Below, piece after piece: positions 37,522 through 51,707 of a stretch of DNA of 64,000 nucleotides (the first letter of the stretch is position 1; the number at the start of each line of letters is the position of its first letter). Made by a program: the position numbers and the translations under genes. Source of the stretch: Pseudooceanicola atlanticus (GTDB lineage Bacteria > Pseudomonadota > Alphaproteobacteria > Rhodobacterales > Rhodobacteraceae); NCBI RefSeq assembly GCF_000768315.1, contig NZ_AQQX01000016.1, positions 1-64,000 of the forward strand, in the 5' to 3' direction. The notes under the pieces are model-generated. The model worked only from the letters and a program-made list of their open reading frames with translations. It was not told the origin of the DNA and did not search any database.

Positions 37522-37540
37522 CCTTGCCAAAACCGCAAGG
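37522..37540 (-). promoter_or_regulatory. Hairpin covering the ribosome-binding site of the sigma gene
   Basis: On the minus strand CCTTGC-GGTTTTG-GCAAGG (6-bp stem, 7-nt loop) places the AAGG of the ribosome-binding site in its 3' arm, 11 bases before TTG 37510. This could lower translation and melt on warming, as in RNA thermometers of rpoH genes. The resemblance is only architectural. Confidence 0.35.
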
Positions 37541-37603
37541 CTAGCAAAGCACAGTTTGGTTAATGTTTGAAGGAATGTTTGATTTAAGGAAGGTTAAAAG
37601 AAC

Positions 37604-38362
37604 TCAATTTCTTTGAGAATTGTTGGCCGATCTTGCAGAAGTCTTGGAATTCGCTCCGATTTCCGCGGATACGACCTGGCCGACATGCTGCACCCATTCG
37701 TCAAACGGCCGCGTCCCGCCGGCAGGGAGCATGAGGCGGGTCGGGATATCGTCGGCCCCGGTGCAGGAGAAGCTGGCATCGAGCGCGCGCAGGTAGCGCG
37801 GCAGTTCCGGACGGCGCAGGAAATCGGGGCGATCGAACAGCCCGGTCGTATCGGCCCCGGCATTACGGACACCCGACCAGTATGCGCCAAGCGACGCGGC
37901 AAGGCCGGTGCGGAATTCGGTCCGGTCCAAGCCGCTATGGCGGAAACCGCTGGCCTCGACCAGCTTGTCGTAGGACGCGGCCATTGCAAAAAGCGCGTCG
38001 GTTTCGCGGTCCATCGCGAAGAGCCCGGTCCGCATGAGGTTCAGCAGCACATCGCCAAGGATCAGCCCCGCATCGTAGGAGACGGGACCCGTCGAACCCG
38101 CATCGCGCAGAATGACAAGCGCGCCATAGGAGACGTCAACGCCCAGCTCTTCGACAATGACATCGCCCAGAGGCAGGGCCGGCATCAGTTCAGCGTCGTC
38201 GAGCATGACAGAGACCCGGTCGACGCAGGCCTCTGCCGTCAGAAGGACATGGTGAACCGGCAGCAGGGCACGCAATTGGCGCGACAGGTCCGTCGCAGAA
38301 CCGCCGCGTGCCGCCCTTATGCGACCTGTCCAAATATTCTCCAGTACTCGGTCGTGCCTCAT
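37604..38362 (-). CDS. Hypothetical protein of the flagellar cluster
   Basis: I do not recognise this 252-residue protein. It has no signal peptide or membrane segment. The start is ATG 38362 (MRHDRVLENIWTGRIRAARGG); the frame is open much further upstream, but that part lacks protein character. The central part is helical (SYDAGLILGDVLLNLMRTGLFAMDRETDALFAMAASYDKLVEASG), and the C-terminus is polar. It lies between motB and the sigma factor gene on the same strand, so a cytoplasmic flagellar regulatory or assembly role is possible but unproven. Confidence 0.55.
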   Translation of the reverse strand: MRHDRVLENIWTGRIRAARGGSATDLSRQLRALLPVHHVLLTAEACVDRVSVMLDDAELMPALPLGDVIVEELGVDVSYGALVILRDAGSTGPVSYDAGLILGDVLLNLMRTGLFAMDRETDALFAMAASYDKLVEASGFRHSGLDRTEFRTGLAASLGAYWSGVRNAGADTTGLFDRPDFLRRPELPRYLRALDASFSCTGADDIPTRLMLPAGGTRPFDEWVQHVGQVVSAEIGANSKTSARSANNSQRN

Positions 38363-38646
38363 GGTGTGCCCCAATATCTTGTGTCTCCAACGTACAGATA
38401 TGGGGGGTGTGAGGAAAGCGACTAAGGGTGGATCGATTAACGAAATATGGGGATAACTCTGATCCGCGCCGCTATATATTGCAGCCATTGGGATGAGGTT
38501 CGGCCAGCAACCCTTTGCCGGATCACGTGCAAATCGCACTGGCGTGACTTGTGGAAAAGTCGGACCGCACAGATGCCGCAAAAGCGCGCATCAGGTCAAT
38601 ATCCGGACACACGGCCCCTGGTAAGAACCGATACGATTCGCCGAAT
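38363..38646. other. Intergenic region between motB and the hypothetical gene
   Basis: I see no gene, RNA or clear terminator in these 284 bp. They are mixed in composition with an AT-rich part next to the hypothetical gene (about 38430-38480), which probably holds its promoter. Open frames here are extensions or shadows. Confidence 0.5.
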
Positions 38647-39642
38647 TCAGCGGTCCACGCGCGTGTTGGGATAGGACAGCAGGACGCTGATCCGCCGGTT
38701 TTCCGCCGCGTCGGGGGTTTCCGGTGTCAGCGGTTCGGTCGCTGCCAGGCCCGAGATTCGCGTGATCCGTGCCGGCGACACGCCAGTATCGATCAGCACC
38801 CGCCGCGTCGCGTTGGCCCGGTCGGCGGAAAGCTCCCAGTTGGAATATCCCTGGTTCGAGGAAAACGGCACGCTGTCCGTATGACCCGAGATGACGATCG
38901 GGTTGGGCAAATCCATGATCGCCTCACCAATGATCCGGATCAGGCTGCGCGTCCGTGCATCGACACGGGACGATCCGCGCGCGAACATCGACCGGCCCTC
39001 CTTGTCGACGATCTGGACCAGCAGGCCGTCGGGCGTGCGGTCGAAGCGCAGGTTATCCTGGAATTCCTGCAGGTCGCTGCGTTCGACCACGTGGGCGATG
39101 ATCTCTTCCTCGAGCGCCTGCATTTCCGCGTTGCGTTCGGCGATCTCCTGGGCGCGGGCTTCGGCCTCGGCCATTTCCTGCGTGGCTTCCTCCACGGCAG
39201 AGGCCTCGGGGGTCGGTTCCGGCGTGGCCTCGACCATGGTGCCGTCTTCCTGGGTCTCGTATTCGACGATGACCTCGGTCCGTTCGTCGCGCAGGCGGCT
39301 GTCGAACACGGCAAGGGGGTTTTCCTGCCCGAAATTCGGAACCTGCGCGGTCGAGCGGCTGCCCGGATCGTTGCTGCCGCCATTCACCCCGTCGCTGGCC
39401 ACGATGGTCCCGGCCAGCATCCCCTGCCCAGTTCCGCCGGCCTGCGACAGGCTGGGCGTGAAGTAATCGGCAAGGCCCCTCAGCGCCTCTTCATCCGACG
39501 CAGCGAGGATCCAAAGCAGAAGGAAGAAGGCCATCATCGCGGTCATGAAGTCGGCATAGGCGACCTTCCAGCCGCCACCGTGGTGACCGCCGCCGCCGTC
39601 TTCTTCGATCTTCTTGATGATGATGGGTTCGTTGGTGGCCAT
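38647..39642 (-). CDS. motB: Flagellar motor protein MotB
   Basis: This 331-residue stator subunit has a short cytoplasmic N-terminus (IIIKKIEEDGGGGHHGGG), the single membrane helix VAYADFMTAMMAFFLLLWILA with the proton-carrying Asp in YADFM, a long periplasmic plug/linker with a Glu/Ala-rich coiled coil (about 135-185), and a C-terminal OmpA-like peptidoglycan-binding domain (VISGHTDSVPFSSNQGYSNWELSADRANATRRVLIDTGV). It is separated from motA (45142). It follows the mucR gene by 17 bp. Confidence 0.92.
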   Translation of the reverse strand: MATNEPIIIKKIEEDGGGGHHGGGWKVAYADFMTAMMAFFLLLWILAASDEEALRGLADYFTPSLSQAGGTGQGMLAGTIVASDGVNGGSNDPGSRSTAQVPNFGQENPLAVFDSRLRDERTEVIVEYETQEDGTMVEATPEPTPEASAVEEATQEMAEAEARAQEIAERNAEMQALEEEIIAHVVERSDLQEFQDNLRFDRTPDGLLVQIVDKEGRSMFARGSSRVDARTRSLIRIIGEAIMDLPNPIVISGHTDSVPFSSNQGYSNWELSADRANATRRVLIDTGVSPARITRISGLAATEPLTPETPDAAENRRISVLLSYPNTRVDR

Positions 39643-39659
39643 GAACGACTCCGCCGGGA

Positions 39660-40085
39660 TCAGGAGATATCTTCGTCGCTATCCTGTTTCTGGACACCGC
39701 GATCATATTTGCCAAAGCCCGCCTGTTTCGCATGGCTGGCCTTCTTGCGGGAATAGCTGGGTGCGACCAGCGCCATGTCCGCGGGAAGGTTGAACATCGC
39801 GCGATACTCGGCCTCCGTTAGGCCATGTTCCGCGCCCAGATGCCGTTTCAGCATCTTGAAGCCGCGTCCGCAGCACAGGCAGTACACCTTGTCCTCGGTC
39901 ACCGCGCGTTCCGGCGGAAGCGCCGGGGTTGCTGCCGTAGGGTTGGCGGCGGGTTCAGCCCCCTCCCCGTCCGTGTTCATGAGCCTGTTGTAAAGCTCGA
40001 CGATCGCGTCCGGTGTCGCATCCGGCCTTGCGGCGAAGGATGCGACGATCGTCGCGATCATGTCCTTCTTTGTCTCTTCTGCCAT
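39660..40085 (-). CDS. MucR/Ros family zinc-finger transcriptional regulator
   Basis: This 141-residue protein of the Ros/MucR family has a complete prokaryotic zinc finger C-x2-C-x9-H-x4-H (CLCCGRGFKMLKRHLGAEH) followed by the family segment GLTEAEYRAMFNLPADMALVAPSYSRKKASHAKQAGFGK. The N-terminal part (TKKDMIATIVASFAARPD) is the usual oligomerisation region. MucR proteins repress flagellar, polysaccharide and virulence genes in rhizobia and Brucella. Its place directly before motB suggests it regulates this cluster. Confidence 0.85.
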   Translation of the reverse strand: MAEETKKDMIATIVASFAARPDATPDAIVELYNRLMNTDGEGAEPAANPTAATPALPPERAVTEDKVYCLCCGRGFKMLKRHLGAEHGLTEAEYRAMFNLPADMALVAPSYSRKKASHAKQAGFGKYDRGVQKQDSDEDIS

Positions 40086-40160
40086 GCCTGTCCTCAGTCA
40101 CTGCCCGATCGGGTCTCTGTCCGGTCTTTTTGCCGGATCTGGCCCGTTATGCTCGTTGCC

Positions 40161-40502
40161 TTAGCCATTCCGCGGAGTCCGCTGAACGGTCGTCTTGCGA
40201 CGGAGATAGTTCGCCGCCACCATCGGGTATTCCGGGGGAAGCCCCCAGCGATCCCGATATTCATCCGGGGTCATCCGCAGGGTTTCCCGCAGATGGCGCC
40301 GCAGCAGAACCTGCCGCGACCCGGTTTCCAGGCAGACAAGGAAGTTGGGTGTGACACTGTCCTCGACCCGGACAGCGGGACGCAGTGCGGCACCAGTCAC
40401 CCGATGCTGCCTGCGGCCAAGAAACCGAAGGGCCGAAACCCAACGGATCAAGCCCGCGGCACCCGATATTCTGATGCGCCCGAATCCCATCAAATGCCCC
40501 AC
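40161..40502 (-). CDS. MucR-like protein with degenerate zinc finger and unusual N-terminus
   Basis: The last 70 residues (VEDSVTPNFLVCLETGSRQVLLRRHLRETLRMTPDEYRDRWGLPPEYPMVAANYLRRKT) are a clear MucR DNA-binding region, but the finger has only one Cys (CLET) and lacks the second Cys and distal His. The first 45 or so residues do not look like the normal MucR N-terminus, so it may be truncated or diverged. The start is uncertain: GTG 40502 or ATG 40490. It lies between the mucR gene and the glycosyltransferase gene on the same strand. Confidence 0.55.
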   Translation of the reverse strand: MGHLMGFGRIRISGAAGLIRWVSALRFLGRRQHRVTGAALRPAVRVEDSVTPNFLVCLETGSRQVLLRRHLRETLRMTPDEYRDRWGLPPEYPMVAANYLRRKTTVQRTPRNG

Positions 40503-40609
40503 ACCATGCAGCCCTGCGCCACCTGTTGATGAACAGATACGCTTTTAAGGTTAAAGGCAGTTGAAAACCTAGGCTTTTTCATGACCCGCTCAAGAATTGT
40601 TACCGGGCA

Positions 40610-42469
40610 TCAAGGACACACGGCCTGCCGGAGCTTGGAAAGCGGCTCTTCCCATTCCCCGAGGACTGTCTGACGATAGAGGTTGAGGTTGCCGTACCAG
40701 GGGTCGCGGCTTTCGGTTTCACCCCAGTACCACATGCATTCCGACCCGGTCGGAATCAGCACATGGGTATCGGGATGACCCAGCACGCCGCAGGCATGAA
40801 CGGTGGTGTTGTCGATGCTCAGCACGCGGTCCATTGCCGCGATCTGTGCAAAGAACCCGGCGAGGTCCGTCATCTGGTCCACCTCGGGATCGTCGAGGAT
40901 CGTGAGGTCAGGCCGTGCCTTGCGCGCGGCCGCGATATCCGCGGTGCGGTCACCGTATTGCAGGTTCACGACCAGCGCGCCTTCTGGCACCGCTGTCAGC
41001 AGGTCCTGAAGCGTCACGGATCGCAGATGCCCCAGGATCGACCCGGAGGCCCAGGCGGCGCCGATGATCGGTGCCCCATTGGCGAGGCTCAGATACTTGT
41101 CGCGCAGATGCTTTAGCCGCGCGGCATCGGGTTTGACCCAGGCGCCCTGCTTCCGTTCCGTGTTGTTGGCGTCGAGATACCGGGCGAGGTCACCGATATA
41201 GACAAGTTCGTTGCGCGCCAGCACCTGGGGCTGGGCCAGAAAATCCTTCTTGTCGACAACCGAGAAGCCGAAGCTGTTATCGGCCAACGCCTTCACGAAG
41301 CGCTTGTCCGACACGAGAGAAACTTCGATCTTGTCCAATTCGACGGGCGCCAGACGCAGCAACGACAGAAGCGCCAGCTGGTCGCCGATCCCCTGCTCAC
41401 CGATCAGACGGAGGTGCTTGACCTGTTCCAGGTTCTCGGGCGCGGAGTTTTCATAGGGCACATGCCCCCGCTGCCCCTTTTCGAACCGCTCCGCGTAATA
41501 GGTCGCGCCGTTTTCGAAGTCGCCGCGCCGCATGAGGTAGACCCCGTAGGCCTTGGCAATCTTGAGGTTGGTACCCCCGGCGTGAACGCCTTCCAGATAG
41601 GCGCTGTCGGCCTCGTCACTGCGGCCGATATCCTGAAGGATGTTGGCCATCACGCCGCGCATCTCCGAATACCGCGCGGGCGAGGCGAATTCGTGATCCT
41701 CGGCGACCTTCAACGCCTCTTCGGGGCGGTTGGTCGTGCGCAGGATCATGACCTTGTAGACGATGACGGTGTCACGGTCCTTCACGCTGGGATCGGCCAG
41801 CAATTCGTCGGCCAGTTTGTTCGCCTGGTCCAGCTTGCGCAGGTAGACCATCGCGCGCAGCCGGGCGATGCGGTGCGCCTCGACTTCCGGATCGATACGC
41901 CAGGCGCGTTCCAACCATTCGGCGGCCCGGCGGGTCTCGTCATAATCGCACAGCAGATCGGCCAGCCGCATGCAGAGCGTCGGATCCTCCAGCCGCAGGG
42001 CGACGGGGGCCAGCACATCGGTCGCGGCTTGGCTGCGGCCCATTTCCGACATCAGCTCGGCATAGAGGCGGGCAAGGCCGATCTCGTCAGCGCCGGCGGC
42101 GAAGGCCCGTTCGGCCGTGCTCACGGCCTCGTAAGGGTCGGCCTGCAGCACGAAGGACTTGGCCAGCCCGACCAGCGCACCGGTATCGCTGGGCGCAAAA
42201 TCCAGCGCGCGCTGGAAGAATGCCTGCGCGGTCTTCCCTTCGCGCTGTGCAAGGGCCGCGCCGCCCATGACCACCCAGGCATGCACGCTTTTCGGGTGGC
42301 TTTTCGTGATCGGGTGGGCCAGCTGGACCGCCCGTTTCACGTCGTTCTGGTTCAGGGCCCGATACGCCTCGTGCAGGTCAAGGGATTCCTGGCCCTTGAT
42401 CCCATAGATCTTCGACGCCTTGGCGATCTTGGCGCGACGGTCCTTGCGAGAGAGAGTTGTATCGGCCAT
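40610..42469 (-). CDS. TPR-repeat glycosyltransferase, candidate flagellin glycosyltransferase (FlmG-like)
   Basis: This 619-residue soluble protein has TPR repeats over about residues 25-330 and a C-terminal GT-B-type domain (about 345-615). The latter has the family marks LIGEQGIGDQLALLSLL, VNLQYGD, FFAQIAAMDRVLSIDNTTVHACGVLG and DPWYGNLNLYRQ. Such TPR-GT proteins occur beside alphaproteobacterial flagellar genes, and Caulobacter FlmG of this build glycosylates flagellin. It follows the GT2-FkbM gene by one base. The Ser/Thr-rich centres of the two flagellins here are likely targets. Substrate sugar and target are inferred. Confidence 0.72.
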   Translation of the reverse strand: MADTTLSRKDRRAKIAKASKIYGIKGQESLDLHEAYRALNQNDVKRAVQLAHPITKSHPKSVHAWVVMGGAALAQREGKTAQAFFQRALDFAPSDTGALVGLAKSFVLQADPYEAVSTAERAFAAGADEIGLARLYAELMSEMGRSQAATDVLAPVALRLEDPTLCMRLADLLCDYDETRRAAEWLERAWRIDPEVEAHRIARLRAMVYLRKLDQANKLADELLADPSVKDRDTVIVYKVMILRTTNRPEEALKVAEDHEFASPARYSEMRGVMANILQDIGRSDEADSAYLEGVHAGGTNLKIAKAYGVYLMRRGDFENGATYYAERFEKGQRGHVPYENSAPENLEQVKHLRLIGEQGIGDQLALLSLLRLAPVELDKIEVSLVSDKRFVKALADNSFGFSVVDKKDFLAQPQVLARNELVYIGDLARYLDANNTERKQGAWVKPDAARLKHLRDKYLSLANGAPIIGAAWASGSILGHLRSVTLQDLLTAVPEGALVVNLQYGDRTADIAAARKARPDLTILDDPEVDQMTDLAGFFAQIAAMDRVLSIDNTTVHACGVLGHPDTHVLIPTGSECMWYWGETESRDPWYGNLNLYRQTVLGEWEEPLSKLRQAVCP

Positions 42470-42470
42470 G

Positions 42471-43814
42471 TCACTCCTTCGGGATAGCGAAGTAATCGAT
42501 CGTGTTGACGTAAGTGGTACTGTCGACGATCCGGTAACCGGCGGACTTGCACCAAGACTGGGCGAAACCCAGCATGTTTTCGCGCAGCACCTCGACCCAG
42601 ATGACGGGCTTGTCCCGGGCGATCAGGTCGCGGGCCCCTTCGAGGACATCAAGCTCCATCCCCTCGGCGTCGATCTTGATGAAGTCGACCTTTTCGTCCC
42701 CCATCATCGCGTCGAGCGTTTTCGTCTCGATTCCACCCGTTTCATCGGCCACCAGACGCGTTGCGCCAAGGTTGTCGGCATTGTCGGTCTGGGTGCGGAA
42801 CGTCCCGGTAGACTTGCCGGCACCATAGCCCATGCCCCGCCGGTCGATCACCGTGTCGATGCCGTTGGCCGCGATATTCTGGTTCAAGAGCGTAAGCGCC
42901 TCGGGGTTCGGTTCGACCGGGTAGATGCGTGACGCATCGAGGTGCTGGGCATACCAGACCACGTGATTGCCGATATTCGCGCCCACCTCAACAATGCGGG
43001 GGGACGGCGCCTTTACCAGCTTCTTCAGCTTGGCCAGGCTGTCGGCCTCGAAGAACTTGCCGCGCAGGTGGGTCATCTGGATCAGGTCGTTCGGGTTCGT
43101 CACCCGCATCCGGGCCGGTGCGCCCTCCCCGTCGCGGATTGTGGCCCAGACCTCGACCTGTTTCAGTTGCTCCGCCCATTGGCGGTTGGTTTCGTGATAC
43201 CAATCCTCACCCGTGGCGGACCGTGGCCCCGTCGAATGCTGGCCACGCCGGTTGACGAAGAAGATCTCGGCCCGCTTGCCACAGCGGCACTGGTCCCACA
43301 GCTGACAGTAAAGCTTGTAATCCTCGCCCGTATCCATATCCGCATCGAAACCGAACCGCGCAGCGCAATCGGTCCGGATGAACCCGCCGATCTGAACGGC
43401 CGCATAGGGCGGGAACGACAGGAAGTCTTCGCGGGTGTCGAGCCGCTCTGCCTGGTCTTCGCGCAGGCCGGGTTCGCCGCCCTCGTCGAAGGTACAGATC
43501 AGACCCCAAACCGCCTGAAGATCGGGCTCCTCGGCGATGATACGCCCGAAGCCTTCGAAGGCGTTCGGCGTCATCACATCATCGGCGTCGAGGAAGAAAA
43601 CCCAGTCCGAGCCGGCCTCCTGCGCCATTGCGATCGCTTCGTTCCGGCGGGCGGAGCGGCCGAACTTCCCCTCCGTATCGTCCATCATCAGGTGCCGGAC
43701 CTCGGTGAACGGCCCCATGTTCCACGCCTTGGCCTGTTCGACGGACGGCGCACAGCTGGTCTGGAACAGCTCCATGTGCCCCGGACCGACCGGCGTGATG
43801 ATCGTGCAGATCAT
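42471..43814 (-). CDS. GT2 glycosyltransferase fused to FkbM-type methyltransferase
   Basis: This 447-residue fusion has an N-terminal glycosyltransferase 2-like domain (about 1-240; MICTIITPVGPGH, DWVFFLDADDVMTPNAF with the DxD-type metal site) and a C-terminal FkbM methyltransferase domain (about 270-440; IVEVGANIGNHVVWYAQHL for SAM binding, VDFIKIDAEGMELDVLEGA). It may add a sugar and O-methylate it. I chose ATG 43814: it overlaps the stop of the upstream gene (ATGA), and the open frame beyond is not protein-like. It is coupled to the TPR-glycosyltransferase and may act in the same flagellin-modifying pathway. Confidence 0.75.
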   Translation of the reverse strand: MICTIITPVGPGHMELFQTSCAPSVEQAKAWNMGPFTEVRHLMMDDTEGKFGRSARRNEAIAMAQEAGSDWVFFLDADDVMTPNAFEGFGRIIAEEPDLQAVWGLICTFDEGGEPGLREDQAERLDTREDFLSFPPYAAVQIGGFIRTDCAARFGFDADMDTGEDYKLYCQLWDQCRCGKRAEIFFVNRRGQHSTGPRSATGEDWYHETNRQWAEQLKQVEVWATIRDGEGAPARMRVTNPNDLIQMTHLRGKFFEADSLAKLKKLVKAPSPRIVEVGANIGNHVVWYAQHLDASRIYPVEPNPEALTLLNQNIAANGIDTVIDRRGMGYGAGKSTGTFRTQTDNADNLGATRLVADETGGIETKTLDAMMGDEKVDFIKIDAEGMELDVLEGARDLIARDKPVIWVEVLRENMLGFAQSWCKSAGYRIVDSTTYVNTIDYFAIPKE

Positions 43815-45010
43815 TCTCCTTCGCTCCGCTCTTCCTCGCGCGCCATCGCGTCGATGAGGCTGAGCGGAGACCCGGTTTGGCGAGTGACCTCGGGTTCGAC
43901 GGAGCTTTCGAGGGCAGCGGGCGCCGGCGCCTCGTCGAAGATCTTGAGGTCGAGGCCGAATTGCAGCGGCTCGATTCCATCGGTGCGGATCATGTAGGCC
44001 CCTGCCCCAAGCCCAAGGCCCAGCACGGTCAGGACCATCACACGCGCCGGGGTGAAGACGCGGCGCAGGATCGGCTTGCGTCGTGCATCCGGCGGCACCC
44101 ACCCTTCGACCAACGCGCCGGGAGCAACAAAGACGCCGCGCGACGTTACGGTCACCTCGGCATGCCGAGCCTGGCCGTCATAACGGCGGGCCAGCGCTGC
44201 GGGAAAACTTTCCACCGGCATGTCGATAACCTGCGCCTCGCCACTGCGCCACCCGTTCAGCGCCGCACGCGGCAGCATGAAACGGGCGAAATCGTCTCTG
44301 AATCCGACATCGGAAATGGTTCGCGGCTCGGTCCGGATCGTCACACGTTCCGGCGCAATGACGAGACGGACATGACCATCCTGGCAGTAAAGATGCGCGT
44401 GTTCGAAAGAACAATCCTCGCGACCCTTGCTGCCGGCAGGGGCATAGCCGTGCGGCATGGAAGGTTCGGCGGGCGCTTCGGGCTTCAGCTTCTTCCCAAG
44501 CCCACCCATCGACAACTTGATCCGCGGGCGAACGGGGCGCGGCGGCTTGATGTCATTGGCCAGCGCCGCGCCGGAGCGGTGGCGGAATTTCGGCCCCGGA
44601 GCCGCAGGACGCTCCCGCGGCTTGGCTCCTTCGGTCGGGCGCATCGTATCGGGGTCGAGCCCCTGATCGACCGCGTACTGAAAGTTGATTGCGTAGTCCT
44701 GGGCAATCTCGGGCAGGTCATAGGCCTCGGCCACGAGGTTCAGCATCTTCTGCTCTTCCGAGAACAGGACACGCCGCGTCGGATAACCCTTCGTTTCGGG
44801 CACGACCATGAACTGCCCCATGGGCCGCTGCAGCACGGACGACACCTTGCGCAGGACGCCGCGGCCTTCATCCTTGTGATATACAAGGATTTCACAGCCG
44901 CCATCCTCGTCGAGGCAGAGCACGACGTTCATCTCGTCCGGCCATTCGGCAAAGATCCCTGCCAGCTGCTCAGCCTCAAGGAAATACGCCAGCTTGTCAG
45001 CTCTGCCCAT
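43811..45010 (-). CDS. Hypothetical protein with C-terminal membrane segment
   Basis: I do not recognise this 399-residue protein. It begins MGRADKLAYFLEAEQLAGIFAEW and has a globular N-terminal part (1-145), a basic Pro/Arg/Lys-rich linker (about 145-205), a second globular part (about 205-325), one membrane helix near residues 333-351 (RVMVLTVLGLGLGAGAYMI) and a short C-terminal tail. It is the first gene of the unit with the GT2-FkbM and TPR-GT genes, divergent from motA. A possible role is membrane recruitment of the modification enzymes, but this is a guess. ATG 45010 is preferred because the frame beyond overlaps the motA promoter. Confidence 0.55.
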   Translation of the reverse strand: MGRADKLAYFLEAEQLAGIFAEWPDEMNVVLCLDEDGGCEILVYHKDEGRGVLRKVSSVLQRPMGQFMVVPETKGYPTRRVLFSEEQKMLNLVAEAYDLPEIAQDYAINFQYAVDQGLDPDTMRPTEGAKPRERPAAPGPKFRHRSGAALANDIKPPRPVRPRIKLSMGGLGKKLKPEAPAEPSMPHGYAPAGSKGREDCSFEHAHLYCQDGHVRLVIAPERVTIRTEPRTISDVGFRDDFARFMLPRAALNGWRSGEAQVIDMPVESFPAALARRYDGQARHAEVTVTSRGVFVAPGALVEGWVPPDARRKPILRRVFTPARVMVLTVLGLGLGAGAYMIRTDGIEPLQFGLDLKIFDEAPAPAALESSVEPEVTRQTGSPLSLIDAMAREEERSEGE

Positions 45011-45040
45011 CAAACGCCCCGCATAAGCAAGAAACAATTG

Positions 45041-45088
45041 CGATCTATTCTTGTTTATACTTGATCCGATGTCAATTATACATATGCT
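45041..45088 (+). promoter_or_regulatory. motA promoter with flagellar box
   Basis: The box CGATCTATTCTTGTT (45041-45055) is identical over 15 bases to the fliL-facing box at 13324-13338. Five bases on is TTGATC (45061-45066), a 16-base spacer and TATGCT (45083-45088), a weak sigma-70 promoter. The box lies where an activator would contact RNA polymerase. Confidence 0.5.
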
Positions 45089-45141
45089 AGACCGCAAATA
45101 ACTTAGAACAATACGGCGCGCAGCAGCATAGGTGACAGAAA

Positions 45142-46008
45142 ATGACGTTGTTCCTTGGCCTGGCAATGGTTTTCGGCCTGGTGTTCGGGGGCTTTATGCT
45201 TTCGGGCGGCAAGATGGACATTGTTCTTCATGCCCTGCCCTTCGAAGGCATGATGATCGGGGGCGCGGCAATCGGGTCCTTCGTGATCGCGAACTCCTTC
45301 TCGGTGATCAAATCCTCGCTCAAGGGCGTCGGTAAGGTCCTGAAGGGCTCGAGGTGGAAGGGACAGGATTACAACGATCTTCTGTCGCTGATGTTCGAAC
45401 TGACCCGCATCTACCGGACGCGCGGCATCCTCGCCCTGGACGATCATATCGAGAATCCGAGCGGCAGCGAAATTTTCGGTCGTTACCCCAAGATCGCCAA
45501 AGACCACTTTGCGCTGGACCTGATCCGGGACAGTTTCCGCATGTTGTCGATGCAGTTCGACGACAAGTACGCGACCGAAGACGTCATCAACCGCAAGATC
45601 AAGAAGCATCACCACGAAAGCCTGGCCGCCGCCCATGCGATCCAGACGATGGCGGACGGTTTGCCGGCGATCGGGATCGTCGCGGCTGTTCTGGGAGTGA
45701 TCAAGACGATGTCGTCGATCGACCAACCGCCGGAGGTTCTGGGTGCCATGATCGGCGGCGCGCTTGTCGGGACGTTCCTGGGCGTGTTCCTCGCCTATTG
45801 CATGGTGCAACCGATTTCCGGGCGCCTGACCCAGATCGAGGAAGAGGACTCGGCCTTCTATCACGTGATCCGCGATATCTTTGTTGCCATGGTCGCCGCT
45901 CATCCCCCGAACATCTGCGTTGAGATCGGCCGCGGCAACATTCCGACCCGGTTGCAGCCCGATTTCTACGAGGTCGAAGCGACCCAGAAAGAATTGCCGG
46001 CGGTATGA
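45142..46008 (+). CDS. motA: Flagellar motor stator protein MotA
   Basis: This 288-residue stator subunit has four membrane helices and the cytoplasmic loop carrying the FliG-contacting charged residues (YRTRGILALDDHIENP, FGRYPKIAKDHFALDLIRDSFRML). Helix 3-4 signatures include MADGLPAIGIVAAVLGVIKTM and MIGGALVGTFLGVFLAYCMVQP. The length is typical of the alphaproteobacterial family. It starts an operon with a small secreted protein and the FliJ-like gene. Confidence 0.95.
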   Translation: MTLFLGLAMVFGLVFGGFMLSGGKMDIVLHALPFEGMMIGGAAIGSFVIANSFSVIKSSLKGVGKVLKGSRWKGQDYNDLLSLMFELTRIYRTRGILALDDHIENPSGSEIFGRYPKIAKDHFALDLIRDSFRMLSMQFDDKYATEDVINRKIKKHHHESLAAAHAIQTMADGLPAIGIVAAVLGVIKTMSSIDQPPEVLGAMIGGALVGTFLGVFLAYCMVQPISGRLTQIEEEDSAFYHVIRDIFVAMVAAHPPNICVEIGRGNIPTRLQPDFYEVEATQKELPAV

Positions 46009-46262
46009 TCCGCGCGTTCGTTCTGTTTCTGGCCTTGCTTCCGGGTGCTGTTGACGCCGCGGGCGGCAATGCAAGCCGGCCCAACACGGACCCTGTCGAC
46101 GCGCCCGGTGCGGATGGTCAGCCTTATTCCGTGCAGCGGCCCGGTTCCTACGTGACCTTTTCGCCGGAAATCCTGGAACAGATGCGCATCGCCATCCTGA
46201 AGAAACGCGGCCAATACCGAGCTGAAGACACGCAGACGCCCAAGAAAGGGAGCGGTCACTGA
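46005..46262 (+). CDS. Small exported hypothetical protein
   Basis: This 85-residue protein has a signal peptide (MIRAFVLFLALLPGAVDAAG) and a short mature part (NASRPNTDPVDAPGADGQPYSVQRPGSYVTFSPEILEQMRIAILKKRGQYR). It overlaps motA by 4 bp and the FliJ-like gene by 1 bp, so it is co-translated with them. I cannot assign a function; a periplasmic motor accessory is possible. Confidence 0.6.
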   Translation: MIRAFVLFLALLPGAVDAAGGNASRPNTDPVDAPGADGQPYSVQRPGSYVTFSPEILEQMRIAILKKRGQYRAEDTQTPKKGSGH

Positions 46263-46678
46263 TGTCGACCAAGCGGCGGCGCGCCCTGTCCGTGATGGAA
46301 CGTCTGCGAGGCAACGAGATCGACCAGGTGTCTCGCGACATGGCGACCGTTCGTGCAAAGCGGGACAAGCTGGCCCGGCAGAAGCGCGAATTGAACGACA
46401 AGCTGAACCGCGAACGCTATTCCGACGCGATCGAGGCTGTGCCCTACATCGCGTCCTTCGTGGACTCCGTGCGCACGCAGATCCGCCAGATCGACATCCA
46501 GCTGAAAGTGATCGAGCCGGAACTGGCCAAGTTCGAGGAAAAGCTCAGAGAGCTCTACCGCGAGCAGAAAGTGTTCGAATCGGTTCGGTTGAAAGACCTT
46601 CGGGAGGAGCAGGCAGCCCTTGCGAAACGCGAAGCGGCCGAGCTGGAAGAGATCACGATCTTGCGGTGGAACCGCTAG
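46262..46678 (+). CDS. fliJ: FliJ-like coiled-coil protein
   Basis: This 138-residue, highly charged and nearly all-helical protein forms a long antiparallel coiled coil (EIDQVSRDMATVRAKRDKLARQKRELNDKL; ELAKFEEKLRELYREQKVFESVRLKDLREEQAALAKREAAELEE). Size, charge and fold fit FliJ, the stalk of the FliI export ATPase, and no other fliJ is found in the cluster. FliI is encoded beyond the repABC module in the opposite direction. Low sequence conservation limits certainty. Confidence 0.55.
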   Translation: MSTKRRRALSVMERLRGNEIDQVSRDMATVRAKRDKLARQKRELNDKLNRERYSDAIEAVPYIASFVDSVRTQIRQIDIQLKVIEPELAKFEEKLRELYREQKVFESVRLKDLREEQAALAKREAAELEEITILRWNR

Positions 46679-46693
46679 AAGTGGCGATTTCAC

Positions 46694-46812
46694 ACTAGAT
46701 AAGTGTCTAGTAGCCCCTGAAAACACTAATTGTGGCAGATTCTGCTTGCCCGAATCTGCAAAGCTGGGCATCTAATTACGGAACAAAGCGTCGAAAACGA
46801 CAAAATCCGTAA
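46694..46812. promoter_or_regulatory. repA upstream control region with three inverted repeats
   Basis: Three inverted repeats lie before repA: ACTAGA-N6-TCTAGT (46694-46711), GCAGATTC-N9-GAATCTGC (46735-46759) and TTACGGA-N23-TCCGTAA (46776-46812). RepA-RepB complexes autorepress repABC transcription through operators at this position, so these are candidate binding sites. None is a copy of the parS palindrome found around repC. Confidence 0.5.
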
Positions 46813-46840
46813 CAATCGGATGCACAGAAGGGCAGTCGCA

Positions 46841-48016
46841 ATGCGCCGTCACGAACGGATCGATAAACTTGTGGGCGACCACGCGGAGAAGCTTTCAGAG
46901 CGGCTCCAGCAGCATCGGTCCCAGTTGTTTCCCCCGAATGCCCGCAAGGAAATGCGAAAGTTCACGGCGGGGGAAGTTGCGGCTCTATTAGGCGTAAAAG
47001 ACTCTTATCTGCGCAAACTACACCTGGATGGGAAGGCCCCCGAGGTCGAGATGCGCGGCAATGGTCGGCGCTATTACAGCGCCGATGACATTCAGGCCCT
47101 GCGCGAGATGTTGGAGGCCGGCGCAAAGGTGACCGGCACCTACATGCCAGGCCGGCGCGACGGCGATCACCTTCAGGTCATTACCGTCATCAACTTCAAG
47201 GGTGGGTCCGGCAAGACGACGACTGCCGCGCATCTGGCGCAGAAAGCTGCGCTGGACGGCTACAAGGTGCTGGCGATCGACCTTGATCCCCAGGCCTCCC
47301 TGTCTGCCTTGCATGGGTTTCAGCCGGAATTCGACCTTCTGGACGGTGGCACGCTCTATGACGCGATCCGCTACGAGGATCCGGTGCCGCTAAGCGACGT
47401 GATCCAGAAGACGTATTTCACCAATCTCGACCTGGTCCCGGGCAACCTGGACCTGATGGAGTTCGAACACGAAACGCCCCGCGCTCTGGCCGAGCGGTCG
47501 GGGTCTTTGTTCTTTACCCGTGTCGGGGACAAATTGGCTGAAATAGAGTCTGAATATGACCTCGTGGTGATCGATTGTCCGCCGCAGCTGGGCTTTCTGA
47601 CGATGTCGGCCCTGTCGGCCGCGACCGCCGTGCTGGTGACCGTGCATCCGCAGATGTTGGACGTGATGTCCATGTGTCAATTCCTGCTGATGACCTCGAA
47701 CCTGCTGGGAGTGGTCAGCGAGGCTGGCGGCAATATGGATTATGACTGGATGCGCTATGTCGTGACCCGGTACGAACCGGGCGACGGGCCGCAGAACCAG
47801 ATGGTCAGCTTCATGCGGTCCATGTTCGGAGAGTACGTCCTGAACCATCCAGTCCTCAAATCCACCGCGATTTCCGATGCCGGGATCACGAAACAGACCC
47901 TGTATGAGGTGGAAAAGAGCCAATTCACCCGGACGACCTATGACAGGGCGCGCGAAAGCCTGGACGCCGTGAACGGCGAGATCGAAGGCCTGATCCAGGA
48001 GGCTTGGGGACGCTGA
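46841..48016 (+). CDS. repA: RepA, ParA-type partitioning ATPase of a RepABC replicon
   Basis: This 391-residue RepA has an N-terminal helix-turn-helix (FTAGEVAALLGVKDSYLRKLHLDGKAPE) and a ParA ATPase domain with the deviant Walker A INFKGGSGKTTTAAHLAQ, the Walker A' region AIDLDPQASLSALHG and Walker B DLVVIDCPPQLGFLTMSALSA. It segregates the replicon and represses its own operon. ATG 46841 is preceded by AAGGG; ATG 46820 and upstream TTG 46730 are less likely because the N-terminus then exceeds the family. Its stop overlaps the repB start (TGATG). Confidence 0.93.
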   Translation: MRRHERIDKLVGDHAEKLSERLQQHRSQLFPPNARKEMRKFTAGEVAALLGVKDSYLRKLHLDGKAPEVEMRGNGRRYYSADDIQALREMLEAGAKVTGTYMPGRRDGDHLQVITVINFKGGSGKTTTAAHLAQKAALDGYKVLAIDLDPQASLSALHGFQPEFDLLDGGTLYDAIRYEDPVPLSDVIQKTYFTNLDLVPGNLDLMEFEHETPRALAERSGSLFFTRVGDKLAEIESEYDLVVIDCPPQLGFLTMSALSAATAVLVTVHPQMLDVMSMCQFLLMTSNLLGVVSEAGGNMDYDWMRYVVTRYEPGDGPQNQMVSFMRSMFGEYVLNHPVLKSTAISDAGITKQTLYEVEKSQFTRTTYDRARESLDAVNGEIEGLIQEAWGR

Positions 48017-48987
48017 TGGCACGCAAGGATTTGCTGAAAGGTCTGATGGGCGACATGCCGAAACAAGCGGACCGGACGGATCCGCCTGACGCCGAGAAGA
48101 CCGAAGCCCCCTCCCCTGCCCGGCCGCGCTATTCCAAGGGTGCGATTGGTGCCGTCAGCCAGTCGATCGCGGAACTGAAAAGCCGCGCCTTGATCGAGGT
48201 TCCCGCCGACATGATCGACCCCGGTGGTCTGGTGGACCGACTGGGCGAGGACCAAGCTGAGCAGGACGCCCTGAAAGCATCGCTTCAGGAATATGGCCAG
48301 CAGGTCCCTGTCCTGTTGCGGCATGATCCGAACGAAGAAGGTCGCTACCAGGTGGTTTATGGCCGGCGTCGGGTTGCGGCGCTGAAGGCCCTGAACATGC
48401 CGGTCAAGGCGATGGTCCGCGATCTGAATGACCGCGACCTGGTGATTGCCCAGGGTCAGGAAAACGCTGCCCGGCGAGACCTAACCTTCATCGAAAAGGC
48501 GAACTTCGCCCGGCAAATGCGGGATGGCGGGTTCGACCGGAAGGTGATCTGTGACGCCCTGCATATCGACAAGACCGTGATTTCCCGAATGCTGAGCGTC
48601 GCGGACGCCCTGCCCTTCGAGCTGATCGCCGAGATCGGTGCCGCGCCCGCGGCTGGTCGCGATCGGTGGCGTATGCTGGCCGACAGGTTCGAGGCGCGGG
48701 ACCGCCCGCTGAAAGCACTGCAAAAGACATTGCAGGCAACTGAAGGTCTTTCTTCGGATCAACGGTTCGAGGCTGTTCTGGCCGAATTGACGGAAACCAA
48801 GGCCAAACCGAAGCCAGCGGAAAGAACCCTGACCGGTCAGGACGATGCGCCGTTGGCCAGGGCAAAGAAATCCGGTCGCAAAACCGTTCTCACCTTCGAT
48901 GCCAAACAGGCCGACGGGTTCGAGGACTGGCTGATCGACAATATCGCAGAGATTCACCGTGACTGGCTGAAAGCCCGCGGAGAATAA
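48016..48987 (+). CDS. repB: RepB, ParB-type centromere-binding partition protein
   Basis: This 323-residue ParB-family protein has the N-terminal RepA-interacting motif (MARKDLLKGLMGD), the ParB nuclease-like fold (QVPVLLRHDPNEEGRYQVVYGRRRVAALKAL, VIAQGQENAARRDLTFIEKANFARQM) and a helix-turn-helix that contacts DNA (VICDALHIDKTVISRMLSVADAL). It should bind the two parS palindromes at 49120 and 50333. The start ATG 48016 overlaps the repA stop. Confidence 0.92.
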   Translation: MARKDLLKGLMGDMPKQADRTDPPDAEKTEAPSPARPRYSKGAIGAVSQSIAELKSRALIEVPADMIDPGGLVDRLGEDQAEQDALKASLQEYGQQVPVLLRHDPNEEGRYQVVYGRRRVAALKALNMPVKAMVRDLNDRDLVIAQGQENAARRDLTFIEKANFARQMRDGGFDRKVICDALHIDKTVISRMLSVADALPFELIAEIGAAPAAGRDRWRMLADRFEARDRPLKALQKTLQATEGLSSDQRFEAVLAELTETKAKPKPAERTLTGQDDAPLARAKKSGRKTVLTFDAKQADGFEDWLIDNIAEIHRDWLKARGE

Positions 48988-49047
48988 GGGCGCAAGCCCG
49001 ACAGGAGCAGAGGACACAAAGGAGGCACGACCAGAGGCAAAATCAAT

Positions 49048-49098
49048 AAAAAAGACCCCCCAGGACATATCATCCCGAGAGGCCGTTTTCGTTCTAGC
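49048..49098 (-). ncRNA. Predicted counter-transcribed RNA (incompatibility RNA) of the repB-repC gap
   Basis: On the minus strand a -35 TTGACA (49129-49134, inside the parS palindrome), an 18-base spacer and a -10 TAGATT (49105-49110) precede a start at about 49098. The transcript would be about 50 nt and end in an intrinsic terminator: stem CCTCTCGGGA / TCCTGGGGGG (10 pairs with G-U), loop TGATATG, then six T. RepABC replicons carry such an RNA here, which base-pairs with the repC leader and lowers RepC. Confidence 0.75.
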
Positions 49099-49119
49099 AC
49101 CTCGAATCTAGCCCTTCAG

Positions 49120-49135
49120 GTTGACAGCTGTCAAC
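49120..49135. other. parS palindrome, copy 1
   Basis: GTTGACAGCTGTCAAC is a perfect 16-bp palindrome that fits the parS consensus GTTNNCNGCNGNNAAC of RepABC plasmids. It lies in the repB-repC gap and its left arm, on the minus strand, is also the -35 box of the predicted counter-transcribed RNA. An identical copy is at 50333-50348. Confidence 0.9.
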
Positions 49136-49151
49136 ACCGCCAGAGGCGGTG
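49135..49151 (+). promoter_or_regulatory. Stem-loop in the repC leader
   Basis: CACCGCC-AGA-GGCGGTG is a 7-bp hairpin 31 bases before the repC start. It could be part of the leader structure that masks repC translation when the counter-transcribed RNA is bound. Confidence 0.45.
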
Positions 49152-49182
49152 AACGGGGAAGATTTGCCTTCGTGAAGAAAAA

Positions 49183-50337
49183 ATGCGGACAGTGACAACG
49201 ACGCCCTTCGGGCGGCGGCCGGTGACGGCCGACCTATTGGACCATCAGGCCAAAGGAAACGGAGTTTCGACCCTCCCCAGCGTCGGAAAATGGGATGTCC
49301 TGAACAGCCTCTCGGTTGTCAGGGATCAATATGGGATCGGGGATCGGACCTTGGCCCTGCTGCAAGTGCTGCTGACGTTCCACCCTCATGCCGAGCTGAC
49401 AGACGGCACACCGATGGTTGTCTTCGCATCCAATACCTCGATCTGTGAGCGCGCCCACGGCATGCCGGAAAGCACTCTGCGTCGGCATCTGGCCGCGTTG
49501 GTCAAGGCCGGCCTGATCCTGCGTCACGACAGCCCGAACGGAAAGCGTTATGCACGCCGCGGGCAAGGCGGACAGATCACGCGCGCCTTCGGCTTTGATC
49601 TCCGTCCTCTGCTGACCCTTGCGCCAGAGATCGCCGAAAGAGCTACGGCAGAAATGCAGCGACGTGATCGGATCAAGGAATTGCGGGAGGAGATCTCGCT
49701 GATGCTACGCGATGCGACCAAGCTGATCCTCTATGCGATTAACAGCGGTCAGTCTGCCAACCTGGACGCGTTCGACGACCAGGCGCAGCTGGCCCGACGC
49801 TACCTGCGCCGAAAGCTCTCTCTCACGGAAATCGAGGAGATGCATGCGAGAATGCAGAGTTTCCTGACGGACGTTCACAACCAATTGGGTGTGGATATCC
49901 CGCAGGACAACACCGAAGAAATCCTGGACGAAACACCTGTTTTGAGCGGCAATGATGCCCGGAATGAGCGGCACTATCATAGTTCAAAAAAAGAAAACTT
50001 AGAAATAGGGAGCGAGGTTCCAATTCGTATGGTCCTCGATAATTGTCCAGACATTGCGCCTTACCTCGACCGACCCGCCAGGACTTGGCCCGACCTTGTC
50101 TCCGCAATGTGTCGCGTCGCTCCGATGACCGGAATTGACGCAAGGGGGTGGTCTGATGCATGCCGCATCATGGGACCCGAACATGCAACGGCAACCCTTG
50201 CCGCCATGGTGCAGAGAATTGGCGAAATCGGTAATCCCGGCGCCTATTTCCGGGCTTTGACGAAGAAGGCCGGGGAAGGTCGGTTCTCACCAATCCCCAT
50301 GCTCAAGGCTTTGGAAGGTGCGAGGGTGGCAAGTTGA
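49183..50337 (+). CDS. repC: RepC replication initiator
   Basis: This 384-residue initiator of RepABC replicons has the N-terminal winged-helix region (KWDVLNSLSVVRDQYGIGDRTLALLQVLLTFHP, VFASNTSICERAHGMPESTLRRHLAALVKAGLILRHDSPNGKRYA) and the RepC C-terminal domain (WPDLVSAMCRVAPMTGIDARGWSDACRIMGPEHATATLAAMVQRI). Length is normal and the frame is intact, so the replicon could be functional. ATG 49183 is preceded by a weak GAAG. The stop codon overlaps the second parS. Confidence 0.95.
   Translation: MRTVTTTPFGRRPVTADLLDHQAKGNGVSTLPSVGKWDVLNSLSVVRDQYGIGDRTLALLQVLLTFHPHAELTDGTPMVVFASNTSICERAHGMPESTLRRHLAALVKAGLILRHDSPNGKRYARRGQGGQITRAFGFDLRPLLTLAPEIAERATAEMQRRDRIKELREEISLMLRDATKLILYAINSGQSANLDAFDDQAQLARRYLRRKLSLTEIEEMHARMQSFLTDVHNQLGVDIPQDNTEEILDETPVLSGNDARNERHYHSSKKENLEIGSEVPIRMVLDNCPDIAPYLDRPARTWPDLVSAMCRVAPMTGIDARGWSDACRIMGPEHATATLAAMVQRIGEIGNPGAYFRALTKKAGEGRFSPIPMLKALEGARVAS
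49974..50047. other. AT-rich segment inside repC, candidate oriV
   Basis: This segment stands out as AT-rich (runs such as TCAAAAAAAGAAAACTTAG) within an otherwise GC-rich gene. RepABC origins lie inside repC in an AT-rich stretch where RepC binds and strands open. The encoded residues (SSKKENLEIGS) form a polar linker. Exact limits are not known. Confidence 0.6.
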
Positions 50338-50348
50338 CAGCTGTCAAC
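50333..50348. other. parS palindrome, copy 2
   Basis: GTTGACAGCTGTCAAC is identical to the copy at 49120-49135. It overlaps the repC stop codon (50335-50337) and ends one base before the fliI stop codon (50349-50351, minus strand), so only 11 bp separate the two genes. A centromere-like site here marks the right boundary of the repABC module. Confidence 0.9.
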
Positions 50349-51707
50349 TCAGCCCTCCTTGCGCGGCAAGGCGACTTCGATCCCGGCATCGCTCAGCAAT
50401 TCGAAGAGGCGGGCGAAGGCCTGATCGCTGGGCGTGGATTCCTTCTTTTGCTGAGACAGAAACTCTTCGGCCGGTTTCGCAAAACGGATCGCCGCGTCGA
50501 TATCCGGATCGGTGCCTTCACGGTACGCGCCAATGCGAATAAGCTCTTCCATATCGGCGTAGCGGGCGAGGGCACGGCGCGCGGATTTAAGGACAGCGTA
50601 TTCCCCATCGTTGTGACAATCCGGCAGCATCCGGGAGATGGAGCGCTGAAGATTCACGGCGGGGAAGCGGCCCTGTTCCGCGATGGCGCGGTCCAGAACG
50701 ACGTGACCATCCATGATACCTCGCACGGAATCCGAGATCGGTTCGTTCATGTCATCGCCATCGACCAGGACGGTGTAGAGGGCAGTGATGTCGCCATGTT
50801 CACCTGTGCCCGGTCCAGCGCGTTCCAGCAGCTGCGGAAGCTCTGCGAAGACGGTAGGCGGGTAGCCTTTGGTCGTCGGCGGTTCGCCACCGGCCAGGCC
50901 GATCTCTCGCTGCGCCATGGCAAAGCGGGTGACGCTGTCGATCAGCAACAGAACCTGAAGCCCTTGGTCACGGAAGTATTCGGCCACGGCGGTCGCGGTC
51001 CAAGCGGCCTGCCGGCGCATCAGGGGCGGTTCGTCCCCGGTGGACACGACGATCACCGACCGGTCGAGCCCTTCCTGGCCCAGATCGTCCTGGATGAAAT
51101 CCTGCACCTCACGTCCACGTTCGCCGACAAGGCCGACGACGATGACGTCCGCCTCTGCACGGCGCGCCATCATCGACAGGAGCGAGGATTTCCCGACGCC
51201 AGAGCCCGCGAAAATGCCCATTCGCTGACCTTTGCAGAGCGGTGTGAAAACATCGAAGACGCGCACCCCGGTGTCGATCCGGTCGCCGACGCGACGGCGG
51301 GAATAGGCGTTCGGCGGCGCGGCTTTGGGAGAGCAGGGATGCGGCCCATCATGGATCACGCCCTTGCCGTCCACCGGGCGGCCGAGGGCATCGACCACGC
51401 GGCCGACCCAGCTGATGTCGGGGCGGATCTTTTCGCCCTGTGTGCTGATCTCGACCCGGTCGCCAATGGTGACTCCGTCCCAAGTGCCGAAGGGCAGAAC
51501 CCGTGTGCCTTCGCCGTCAACGGCGACGACCTCGGCCAGGACCGAGCCCTTGCGCCCGAAAATCGTGCAACGTTGACCGATGCCAAGAGCGCGGGTCAGG
51601 CCCACTACTGTCAGGGTCAGGCCGGTGATCGCACTGACCTCTCCGGCTATTCTTGACCCTTCGGTGTTCCGAGCAAGGGTAGAAAGCTGTGAGAATGCTG
51701 TCTTCAT
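50349..51707 (-). CDS. fliI: Flagellar export ATPase FliI
   Basis: This 452-residue hexameric ATPase powers flagellar protein export in the cytoplasm below the gate. Walker A is GIFAGSGVGKSSLLSMMAR and Walker B is VLLLIDSVTRFAMAQREIG, with the family segments GEPPTTKGYPPTVFAELPQLLERAG and GEHGDITALYTVLVDGDDMNEPISDSVRGIMDGHVVLDR. It is divergent from flgB and converges on repC. The FliH- and FliJ-like partners are encoded elsewhere in the cluster (15133, 46262). Confidence 0.95.
   Translation of the reverse strand: MKTAFSQLSTLARNTEGSRIAGEVSAITGLTLTVVGLTRALGIGQRCTIFGRKGSVLAEVVAVDGEGTRVLPFGTWDGVTIGDRVEISTQGEKIRPDISWVGRVVDALGRPVDGKGVIHDGPHPCSPKAAPPNAYSRRRVGDRIDTGVRVFDVFTPLCKGQRMGIFAGSGVGKSSLLSMMARRAEADVIVVGLVGERGREVQDFIQDDLGQEGLDRSVIVVSTGDEPPLMRRQAAWTATAVAEYFRDQGLQVLLLIDSVTRFAMAQREIGLAGGEPPTTKGYPPTVFAELPQLLERAGPGTGEHGDITALYTVLVDGDDMNEPISDSVRGIMDGHVVLDRAIAEQGRFPAVNLQRSISRMLPDCHNDGEYAVLKSARRALARYADMEELIRIGAYREGTDPDIDAAIRFAKPAEEFLSQQKKESTPSDQAFARLFELLSDAGIEVALPRKEG

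What the first reader, a model, noticed from the sequence alone, without database searches (positions are those of the whole stretch)
46841..50351. A complete repABC module lies in the middle of the flagellar gene cluster
Intact repA, repB and repC sit between the motA-fliJ-like operon and fliI. Genes for one export ATPase complex are thus split by the replication module (FliJ-like on one side, FliI on the other). The cluster therefore appears to be part of a RepABC plasmid or chromid. Flagellar chromids are known in the Roseobacter group (for example in Marinovum algicola), but a rep module in the middle of the cluster is a layout worth describing. Either repABC was inserted into the cluster or the replicon formed around it.
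Basis: partly seen in the sequence, partly recalled or inferred. Interest (0 to 1): 0.75.

Follow-up and report, generated by a model that had tools for sequence, protein, structure and literature searches.

The report
Plasmid replicator inside a flagellar cluster
In a marine bacterium, the genes that copy and share out a plasmid sit inside the gene cluster for a flagellum; the same arrangement occurs in related species, and one relative carries a trace indicating that its copying genes were exchanged for another kind.

Summary
An intact repABC operon (46841-50337) lies between fliJ (ends 46678) and fliI (stop 50349-50351) of a complete fla2-type flagellar cluster on a 70,940-bp contig. No operon is broken: fliJ and fliI point tail to tail, and in three relatives without the module their ends abut, overlap or lie close together.

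It is not a chimera. The same layout occurs in seven other species of two genera. Their RepC proteins form one clade, their FliI proteins do not. That fits one old docking followed by losses and swaps. A relative, G109, carries a DnaA-like module instead, yet keeps a parS scar of the lost repABC at the same place. Of 51 fla2 clusters examined, 18 have a replication module within 4 kb of the fliI stop; beyond flhB there were 0 of 22.

The module looks functional: purifying selection and a parS word identical to one shown elsewhere to bind RepB. The contig is not closed, so plasmid status is inferred.

The closest precedent is the photosynthesis cluster of Rhodobacteraceae, with a DnaA-like module at a conserved central position. 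This is a new variant of that known kind.

The parts
10685..46678 (.). first block of the fla2 flagellar cluster (fliNML-fliF-fliG ... flgI, flgKE, flgFGAH, flgD, fliK, sigma-70, motB, mucR, motA, fliJ)
   Evidence: tblastn with annotated pPABY5 and pMaD5 proteins, collinear
45142..46008 (+). motA
   Evidence: Pfam MotA_N and MotA_ExbB
46262..46678 (+). fliJ, left neighbour of the module
   Evidence: PF02050 E 1e-5, slightly below the curated cut-off; 38% to annotated pPABY5 FliJ
46679..46840 (+). repA upstream region with GANTC sites at -103 and -89; a GANTC at -89 to -91 is present in 8 of 8 species with the layout
46841..48016 (+). repA
   Evidence: Pfam AAA_31; 80-90% to RepA of 37 plasmid records; dN/dS about 0.05-0.12
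48016..48987 (+). repB
   Evidence: PF07506 and ParB_N
49048..49099 (-). candidate antisense ctRNA between repB and repC, with a 14-pair terminator-like hairpin at 49084-49054 followed by T6
   Evidence: ends inferred from promoter and hairpin positions
49105..49134 (-). promoter-like site of the candidate ctRNA, TTGACA-18-TAGATT; its -35 lies inside the parS palindrome
   Evidence: 1 sigma-70-like site found in 46600-50600, 0.8 expected in shuffles; kept in the relatives aligned
49120..49135 (.). parS palindrome GTTGACAGCTGTCAAC in the repB-repC gap
   Evidence: same word in relatives
49183..50337 (+). repC (replicase)
   Evidence: PF03428 and PF11800; trees
50332..50349 (.). second parS palindrome (AGTTGACAGCTGTCAACT); spans the repC stop and touches the fliI stop
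50349..51707 (-). fliI, right neighbour of the module
   Evidence: tblastn: 70% to annotated FliI of Alloyangia and Salipiger plasmids; a second FliI-like protein (45%) is on contig C12
51771..58027 (+). flgB-flgC-fliE-fliQ-SLT-flhA-fliR-flhB block

Best explanation
This is the working replication and partition module of a RepABC replicon. It was docked long ago in the tail-to-tail gap between fliJ and fliI of a fla2 flagellar cluster and has been inherited with the cluster since. [quoted passage not shown] Because the replicator sits inside the cluster, the whole flagellar set travels and persists as one replicon. In some descendants the module was lost or swapped for another replication type in the same interval. 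Shown here: sequence, layout, conservation, one RepC clade, a parS scar in one swapped relative. Inferred: that the replicon is extrachromosomal and uses this module, the ctRNA function, and the order of events.
For: Intact repABC by Pfam. Same layout in G005, G007, G012 and G016 of the genus, Salipiger bermudensis and G418 and G427. RepC of six of these (window included) is one clade at 100/98 among 39 rows, and RepC of all eight at SH-aLRT 96 among 48 rows. FliI of the eight is not a clade (AU p 0.0005 among 32 rows), so occupied clusters are interleaved with repABC-free ones. G109, whose FliI is 96% identical to that of S. bermudensis, has a DnaA-like module but keeps the parS word 22 bp after the fliI stop, the same place as in S. 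bermudensis and G418. The flank matches S. bermudensis at 38 of 42, G418 at 29 of 33 and G427 at 22 of 24 positions; 0 of 2000 dinucleotide shuffles scored as high in each case. dN is well below dS for repA, repB and repC. parS is identical in 8 of 8. The same 16-bp word in pAMI4 is bound by its RepB in vitro (PMC9040568, passages seen).
Against: The contig is not closed and shows no terminal overlap. GC skew gives no clear origin at the module. dS values are above 1, so dN/dS is rough. A second trace in G109, after fliJ, is weak: 24 of 32 positions against S. bermudensis (0 of 2000 plain and 1 of 2000 dinucleotide shuffles as good), but nothing beyond chance against the window, G016, G418 or G427. 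repABC-free clusters nest among occupied ones, so several losses or swaps must be assumed. The promoter-like site and terminator-like sites are no more frequent than in shuffles (1 against 0.8, 6 against 4.1), the antisense hairpin shows no double-sided covariation, its z-score is modest (-1.8, 10 of 200 shuffles as stable), and Rfam has no match.
Confidence: 0.76

Rival explanations
1. The module was not docked once but was put back several times at the same place by recombination through the fliJ and fliI flanks, from a donor plasmid of the same compatibility group.
For: FliI of occupied clusters is not a clade (AU p 0.0005), and occupied G427 sits next to pPABY5 and G415, which carry another repABC.
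Against: The RepC proteins form one clade whose main split in the six-member tree, four from the window's genus against G016 plus S. bermudensis, matches the flagellar tree. The parS scar in G109 shows loss, not gain.
Confidence: 0.17
2. The occupied state is the primitive one: the replicon assembled from two flagellar blocks around repABC, and the contiguous fliI-fliJ state is a later precise deletion. (A variant of the main reading that differs only in the direction of the first step.)
For: Contiguous pMaD5, G282 and G426 nest inside the clade that holds occupied G016, S. bermudensis, G418 and G427. The two blocks also occur in other relative orders (G001; pPABY5).
Against: In pMaD5 the two stops abut with 0 bp between them and no parS core was found in the 41 kb read; a clean deletion leaving no trace is demanding.
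Confidence: 0.25
3. The position is selected: parS and RepAB inside the cluster place the flagellar genes near the cell pole, coupling gene position to polar flagellum assembly.
For: 18 of 51 fla2 clusters have a replication module of several kinds within 4 kb of the fliI stop, against 0 of 22 beyond flhB. Polar linkage of plasmid-borne fla2 is suggested in print (PMC12363192, passages seen).
Against: 33 of 51 have none found within 4 kb. Several counted cases share ancestry. No localisation data were available.
Confidence: 0.1
4. A dead repABC remnant in a chromosomal copy of the cluster.
For: The contig is not closed. G017, a close relative without a replication module found near fliI or fliJ, may show that such clusters can move to the chromosome.
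Against: Three intact genes, conserved parS and antisense locus, dN well below dS.
Confidence: 0.04
5. Chimeric assembly at the two junctions.
For: None found.
Against: The same two junctions occur in seven other species' assemblies.
Confidence: 0.01

Closest known systems
Photosynthesis gene cluster plasmids of Rhodobacteraceae (PMC6052148, PMC6739100; passages seen)
   Same: A large cargo cluster carries a plasmid replication module at a conserved internal position in distant species, and the module was swapped at that place (DnaA-like I to RepB-III in Sulfitobacter guttiformis).
   Different: Here the cargo is a flagellar cluster, the resident module is repABC, the site is the fliJ-fliI tail-to-tail gap, and one swapped relative keeps a parS scar of the old module.
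fla2 flagellar plasmids and chromids (Marinovum algicola pMaD5; survey PMC12363192; Marinovum sedimenti pMsK2, PMC12843797; passages seen)
   Same: Same flagellar gene set and order; plasmid-borne.
   Different: pMaD5 has no module between fliI and fliJ. The passages seen report replication types but not their place in the cluster.
RepABC replicons of Rhodobacterales with parS word TTGACAG/CTGTCAA (e.g. Paracoccus aminophilus pAMI4, PMC9040568; passages seen)
   Same: Same gene order, overlapping repA/repB, the same parS word in the repB-repC gap; parS also commonly after repC in the order.
   Different: The best-ranked PLSDB record has RepC 46% identical and none of 2389 matching records reaches 60%; the module is inside a flagellar cluster.
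Salipiger abyssi pPABY5 (NZ_CP015089)
   Same: A repABC starts about 210 bp after the fliI stop.
   Different: Distant RepC (28%), opposite orientation relative to fliI, and the motA-fliJ block lies elsewhere on the plasmid.

Membership tests
RepABC replicon | repA, repB, repC in this order on one strand | tested here: met
RepABC replicon | RepC N- and C-terminal domains | tested here: met
   PF03428, PF11800
RepABC replicon | parS palindrome matching the family consensus | tested here: met
   GTTGACAGCTGTCAAC at 49120 and 50333; consensus GTTNNCNGCNGNNAAC quoted in PMC9040568
RepABC replicon | antisense ctRNA between repB and repC | tested here: inconclusive
   promoter-like and terminator-like sites on the minus strand, kept in the six species aligned but no more than chance by count; no Rfam match; no expression data
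RepABC replicon | origin within repC, autonomous replication | not testable with these tools
   needs a minireplicon experiment
RepABC replicon | only replication module of the replicon | tested here: inconclusive
   one RepC match on contig C8 and one RepA match on C8; contig not closed; not all ORFs were scanned for other replication types
fla2 flagellar gene cluster | gene set and order of the reference pMaD5 cluster | tested here: met
cargo cluster with an embedded replication module (photosynthesis-plasmid type) | module at the same internal position in distant hosts | tested here: met
   8 species in two genera
cargo cluster with an embedded replication module (photosynthesis-plasmid type) | replacement by another replication type at that position | tested here: met
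   G109, parS scar beside fliI
cargo cluster with an embedded replication module (photosynthesis-plasmid type) | return of the cluster to the chromosome | tested here: inconclusive
   G017 shows no module at either end of the site, but it is a fragmented, 77% complete genome
chromid | chromosome-like codon usage and core genes on the replicon | not tested
   -

The most novel reading that the evidence does not exclude
The fla2 flagellar cluster, not the plasmid backbone, is the lasting unit. It changes replicons by swapping whole replication modules (RepABC of two kinds, DnaA-like, Rep3) at one fixed dock, the 3' end of fliI. The dock is kept because parS and partition proteins next to fliI hold the flagellar genes at the place in the cell where the flagellum is built.
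Probability: 0.12. Interest if true: 0.85.

Novelty: new variant of a known kind. Interest (0 to 1): 0.55.

Why it matters
It gives flagellar clusters the same plasmid-docking history that was shown for photosynthesis clusters. It adds a sequence scar that records a swap of replication systems under a fixed cargo. That makes replicon switching, and how complex traits move between chromosome and plasmid, directly testable in cultured marine bacteria such as Salipiger.

Tried and rejected
Rejected: chimeric assembly (the junctions recur in seven other species). Rejected: a broken operon (fliJ and fliI are convergent). Considered and dropped: that the high RepA identity (85-92%) beside RepC at 45-63% is special to flagellar plasmids. 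RepA is 80-90% identical in 37 PLSDB records as well, so this is the usual pattern of the group.

Led nowhere: Rfam at gathering and at E up to 5; GC skew as a pointer to the origin; a terminal overlap of the contig; tRNA genes (none); covariation in the antisense hairpin (none with both sides changed); a CtrA-like site upstream of repA (none with at most one mismatch); two opposite-strand ORFs given to Pfam (0 families each). The trace after fliJ in G109 proved weak on re-check: one of five comparisons stood out. For that I lowered the main confidence from 0.78 to 0.76.

Left out of counts. The survey of 51 clusters omits five weaker or partial family matches (G401, G104, G327, G210, G359), duplicates of named records (G027, G429, G424, G417, G414), L108 and L109, the outgroup FliI loci, and further Loktanella and Sulfitobacter plasmids. 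Downstream sequence read ranged from 2.5 to 15 kb, and only modules related to the replication proteins used as queries could be seen. The control beyond flhB had 1.3 to 15 kb in 22 clusters. The first RepC tree left out L203, a duplicate; the second also left out the RepC of own contigs C46, C10, C9 and C31 and of pPABY5. The 32-row FliI tree used 22 of the 43 rows plus 10 new ones. In some searches at most four candidates per genome were scored.
Full report
What is there. The window is the first 64,000 bases of contig C8 (70,940 bp) of a 4.94-Mb draft genome in 47 contigs. A repABC operon runs from 46841 to 50337 and its three proteins match the expected Pfam families. To its left is fliJ, ending at 46678; to its right is fliI on the minus strand, with its stop at 50349-50351. 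The flagellar genes on both sides form one cluster, 10685-58024, collinear with annotated fla2-type clusters of Salipiger abyssi pPABY5 and Marinovum algicola pMaD5. A second FliI-like protein, 45% identical, is on a 777-kb contig.

The gap that was filled. In pMaD5 the fliI and fliJ stop codons abut with no base between them; in G282 the two genes overlap by 4 bases. In G426 the first fliJ match begins 80 bp after the fliI stop. The two genes point at each other, so the module lies between two transcription units and cuts none.

It is conserved. In the genus of the window 22 genomes were searched: 9 have a fla2 FliI at E 1e-125 or better, and 5 of these, the window included, have the same motA-fliJ > repA > repB > repC > < fliI layout. 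G007 has a contig of the same length as NZ_BMFJ01000004.1, labelled Primorskyibacter flagellatus CGMCC 1.12664; PMC12843797 (passages seen) says that this assembly is supposed to be Pseudooceanicola flagellatus. The window is therefore probably from Pseudooceanicola, an inference. In the genus of G109, 20 genomes were searched: 15 have a fla2 FliI at E 1e-140 or better. Three of them have the layout: G417, whose RepC is identical to that of S. bermudensis HTCC2601, G418 and G427. That makes eight species in two genera. In a sample of 394 genomes spread over 393 genera, 24 had a RepC at E 1e-70 or better and 26 a FliI at E 1e-125 or better (at most four candidates scored per genome). By the positions listed, only the window's own genome had the two side by side.

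One origin, then loss and exchange. RepC proteins from six flagellar modules form one clade with support 100/98 among 39 rows. Adding G418 and G427 gives one clade of eight, SH-aLRT 96, among 48 rows. The FliI proteins of the same eight do not form a clade (AU p 0.0005, 32 rows), and a five-protein tree of 43 rows gave the same picture for six. The simplest reading is one docking, then losses and swaps; repeated re-entry by recombination is not excluded. G109 is the best case: its FliI is 96% identical to that of S. bermudensis, yet a DnaA-like module lies 664 bp from the fliI stop. Between that module and fliI it keeps the parS word at +22 bp, the same place as in S. bermudensis and G418. The surrounding match is 38 of 42 to S. 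bermudensis, 29 of 33 to G418 and 22 of 24 to G427, each better than all of 2000 dinucleotide shuffles. On the other side, after fliJ, a 24-of-32 match to the S. bermudensis repA upstream region was beaten or equalled by 0 of 2000 plain and 1 of 2000 dinucleotide shuffles, but no such match was seen to the window, G016, G418 or G427, so this second trace is weak. As controls, G017, pPABY5 and G001 showed no such match after fliJ. G109's fliJ and fliI are now about 21 kb apart.

Other replication types at the same place. I examined the DNA after fliI in 51 fla2 clusters (41, 10 more), by tblastn with replication and partition proteins of the types met. Within 4 kb of the stop, 18 have a replication module: 8 the same repABC, 2 another repABC (pPABY5, G415), 4 DnaA-like (G011, G003, G109, G113) and 4 of Rep3 or related kind. 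The DnaA-like label rests on weak DnaA_N matches, of which one of three tested reaches Pfam's cut-off, on neighbouring parA and parB genes, and on recalled knowledge of this plasmid type. Of the last four, G375 is Rep3 by Pfam; Alloyangia has an annotated replication protein beside a ParA 80% identical to that of G375; G419 and G425 match the Alloyangia protein at 98%. G292 has a DnaA-like module at 6 kb; 32 show none in the 2.5-15 kb read. As a control, the DNA beyond flhB in 22 clusters (1.3-15 kb read) held none. The 18 are not independent: several share descent.

Is the module alive? dN is 0.06-0.15 for repA, 0.20-0.32 for repB and 0.32-0.54 for repC, with dS above 1. The parS word GTTGACAGCTGTCAAC occurs in the repB-repC gap and next to fliI in all eight and at the repC of many non-flagellar relatives. 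In Paracoccus aminophilus pAMI4 the identical word binds RepB in vitro (PMC9040568, passages seen). Groups 1 and 2 of Rhodobacterales RepABC use TTAACAG/CTGTTAA and TTCACAG/CTGTGAA (PMC5613091, passages seen), so this module belongs to another group. Another RepABC of the same genome, on C14, carries the group-1 word, as expected of plasmids that must coexist.

A detail. The one sigma-70-like site found in the module region, where shuffles give 0.8, is on the minus strand at 49134-49105, and its -35 hexamer lies inside the parS palindrome. Downstream is a 14-pair hairpin followed by six T. The hexamer, the spacing and the core of the hairpin are kept in the six species aligned, with one change in the -10 of G012, and without double-sided covariation. 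This fits the suggestion in PMC9040568 that RepB at this parS may control the antisense RNA. A GANTC site about 90 bp before repA is kept in 8 of 8.

What is known. About half of fla2 clusters (21 of 43) are plasmid-borne (PMC12363192, passages seen). DnaA-like modules sit at one internal place in photosynthesis clusters, with one exchange for RepB-III (PMC6052148 and PMC6739100, passages seen). In the listings and passages from the searches I met no text describing a replication module inside a flagellar cluster. Frank et al. 2015 and the supplementary figures were not available, so I do not claim it is unreported.

Verdict. A real, conserved and probably functional replication module inside a flagellar cluster, the flagellar counterpart of the photosynthesis-plasmid story, with the scar of a module swap as the new element.

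Noticed in passing
G007:C4 (213,325 bp), 78738-79886 and 185885-186895: Two RepC genes on one contig; the second has the group-2 type palindrome GTTCACAGCTGTGAAC. Possibly a composite replicon.
   Followed up: partly
genome G000, contigs C8, C14, C31, C10, C9, C46: Five RepA/RepC pairs and a further RepC-like protein (C46) in one genome; C14 and C10 show palindromes different from that of C8.
   Followed up: partly
window 49105-49135: The -35 hexamer of the candidate ctRNA promoter lies inside the parS palindrome, so RepB binding could switch the antisense RNA.
   Followed up: partly
window 40610-43814: A TPR protein and an FkbM-type methyltransferase with a glycosyltransferase domain lie inside the flagellar cluster; candidates for flagellin modification.
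   Followed up: no
window 19990-21864; relatives L061, L068: Two flagellin genes in the window but four in a row in G005 and G012.
   Followed up: no
G001:C3 162055-198323: fliI sits next to the hyp-fliN-fliM end instead of fliJ: the long flagellar block is turned around relative to the fliI-flhB block.
   Followed up: partly
NZ_BMFJ01000004.1 (L101): The record labelled Primorskyibacter flagellatus CGMCC 1.12664 is supposed to be Pseudooceanicola flagellatus according to PMC12843797.
   Followed up: partly
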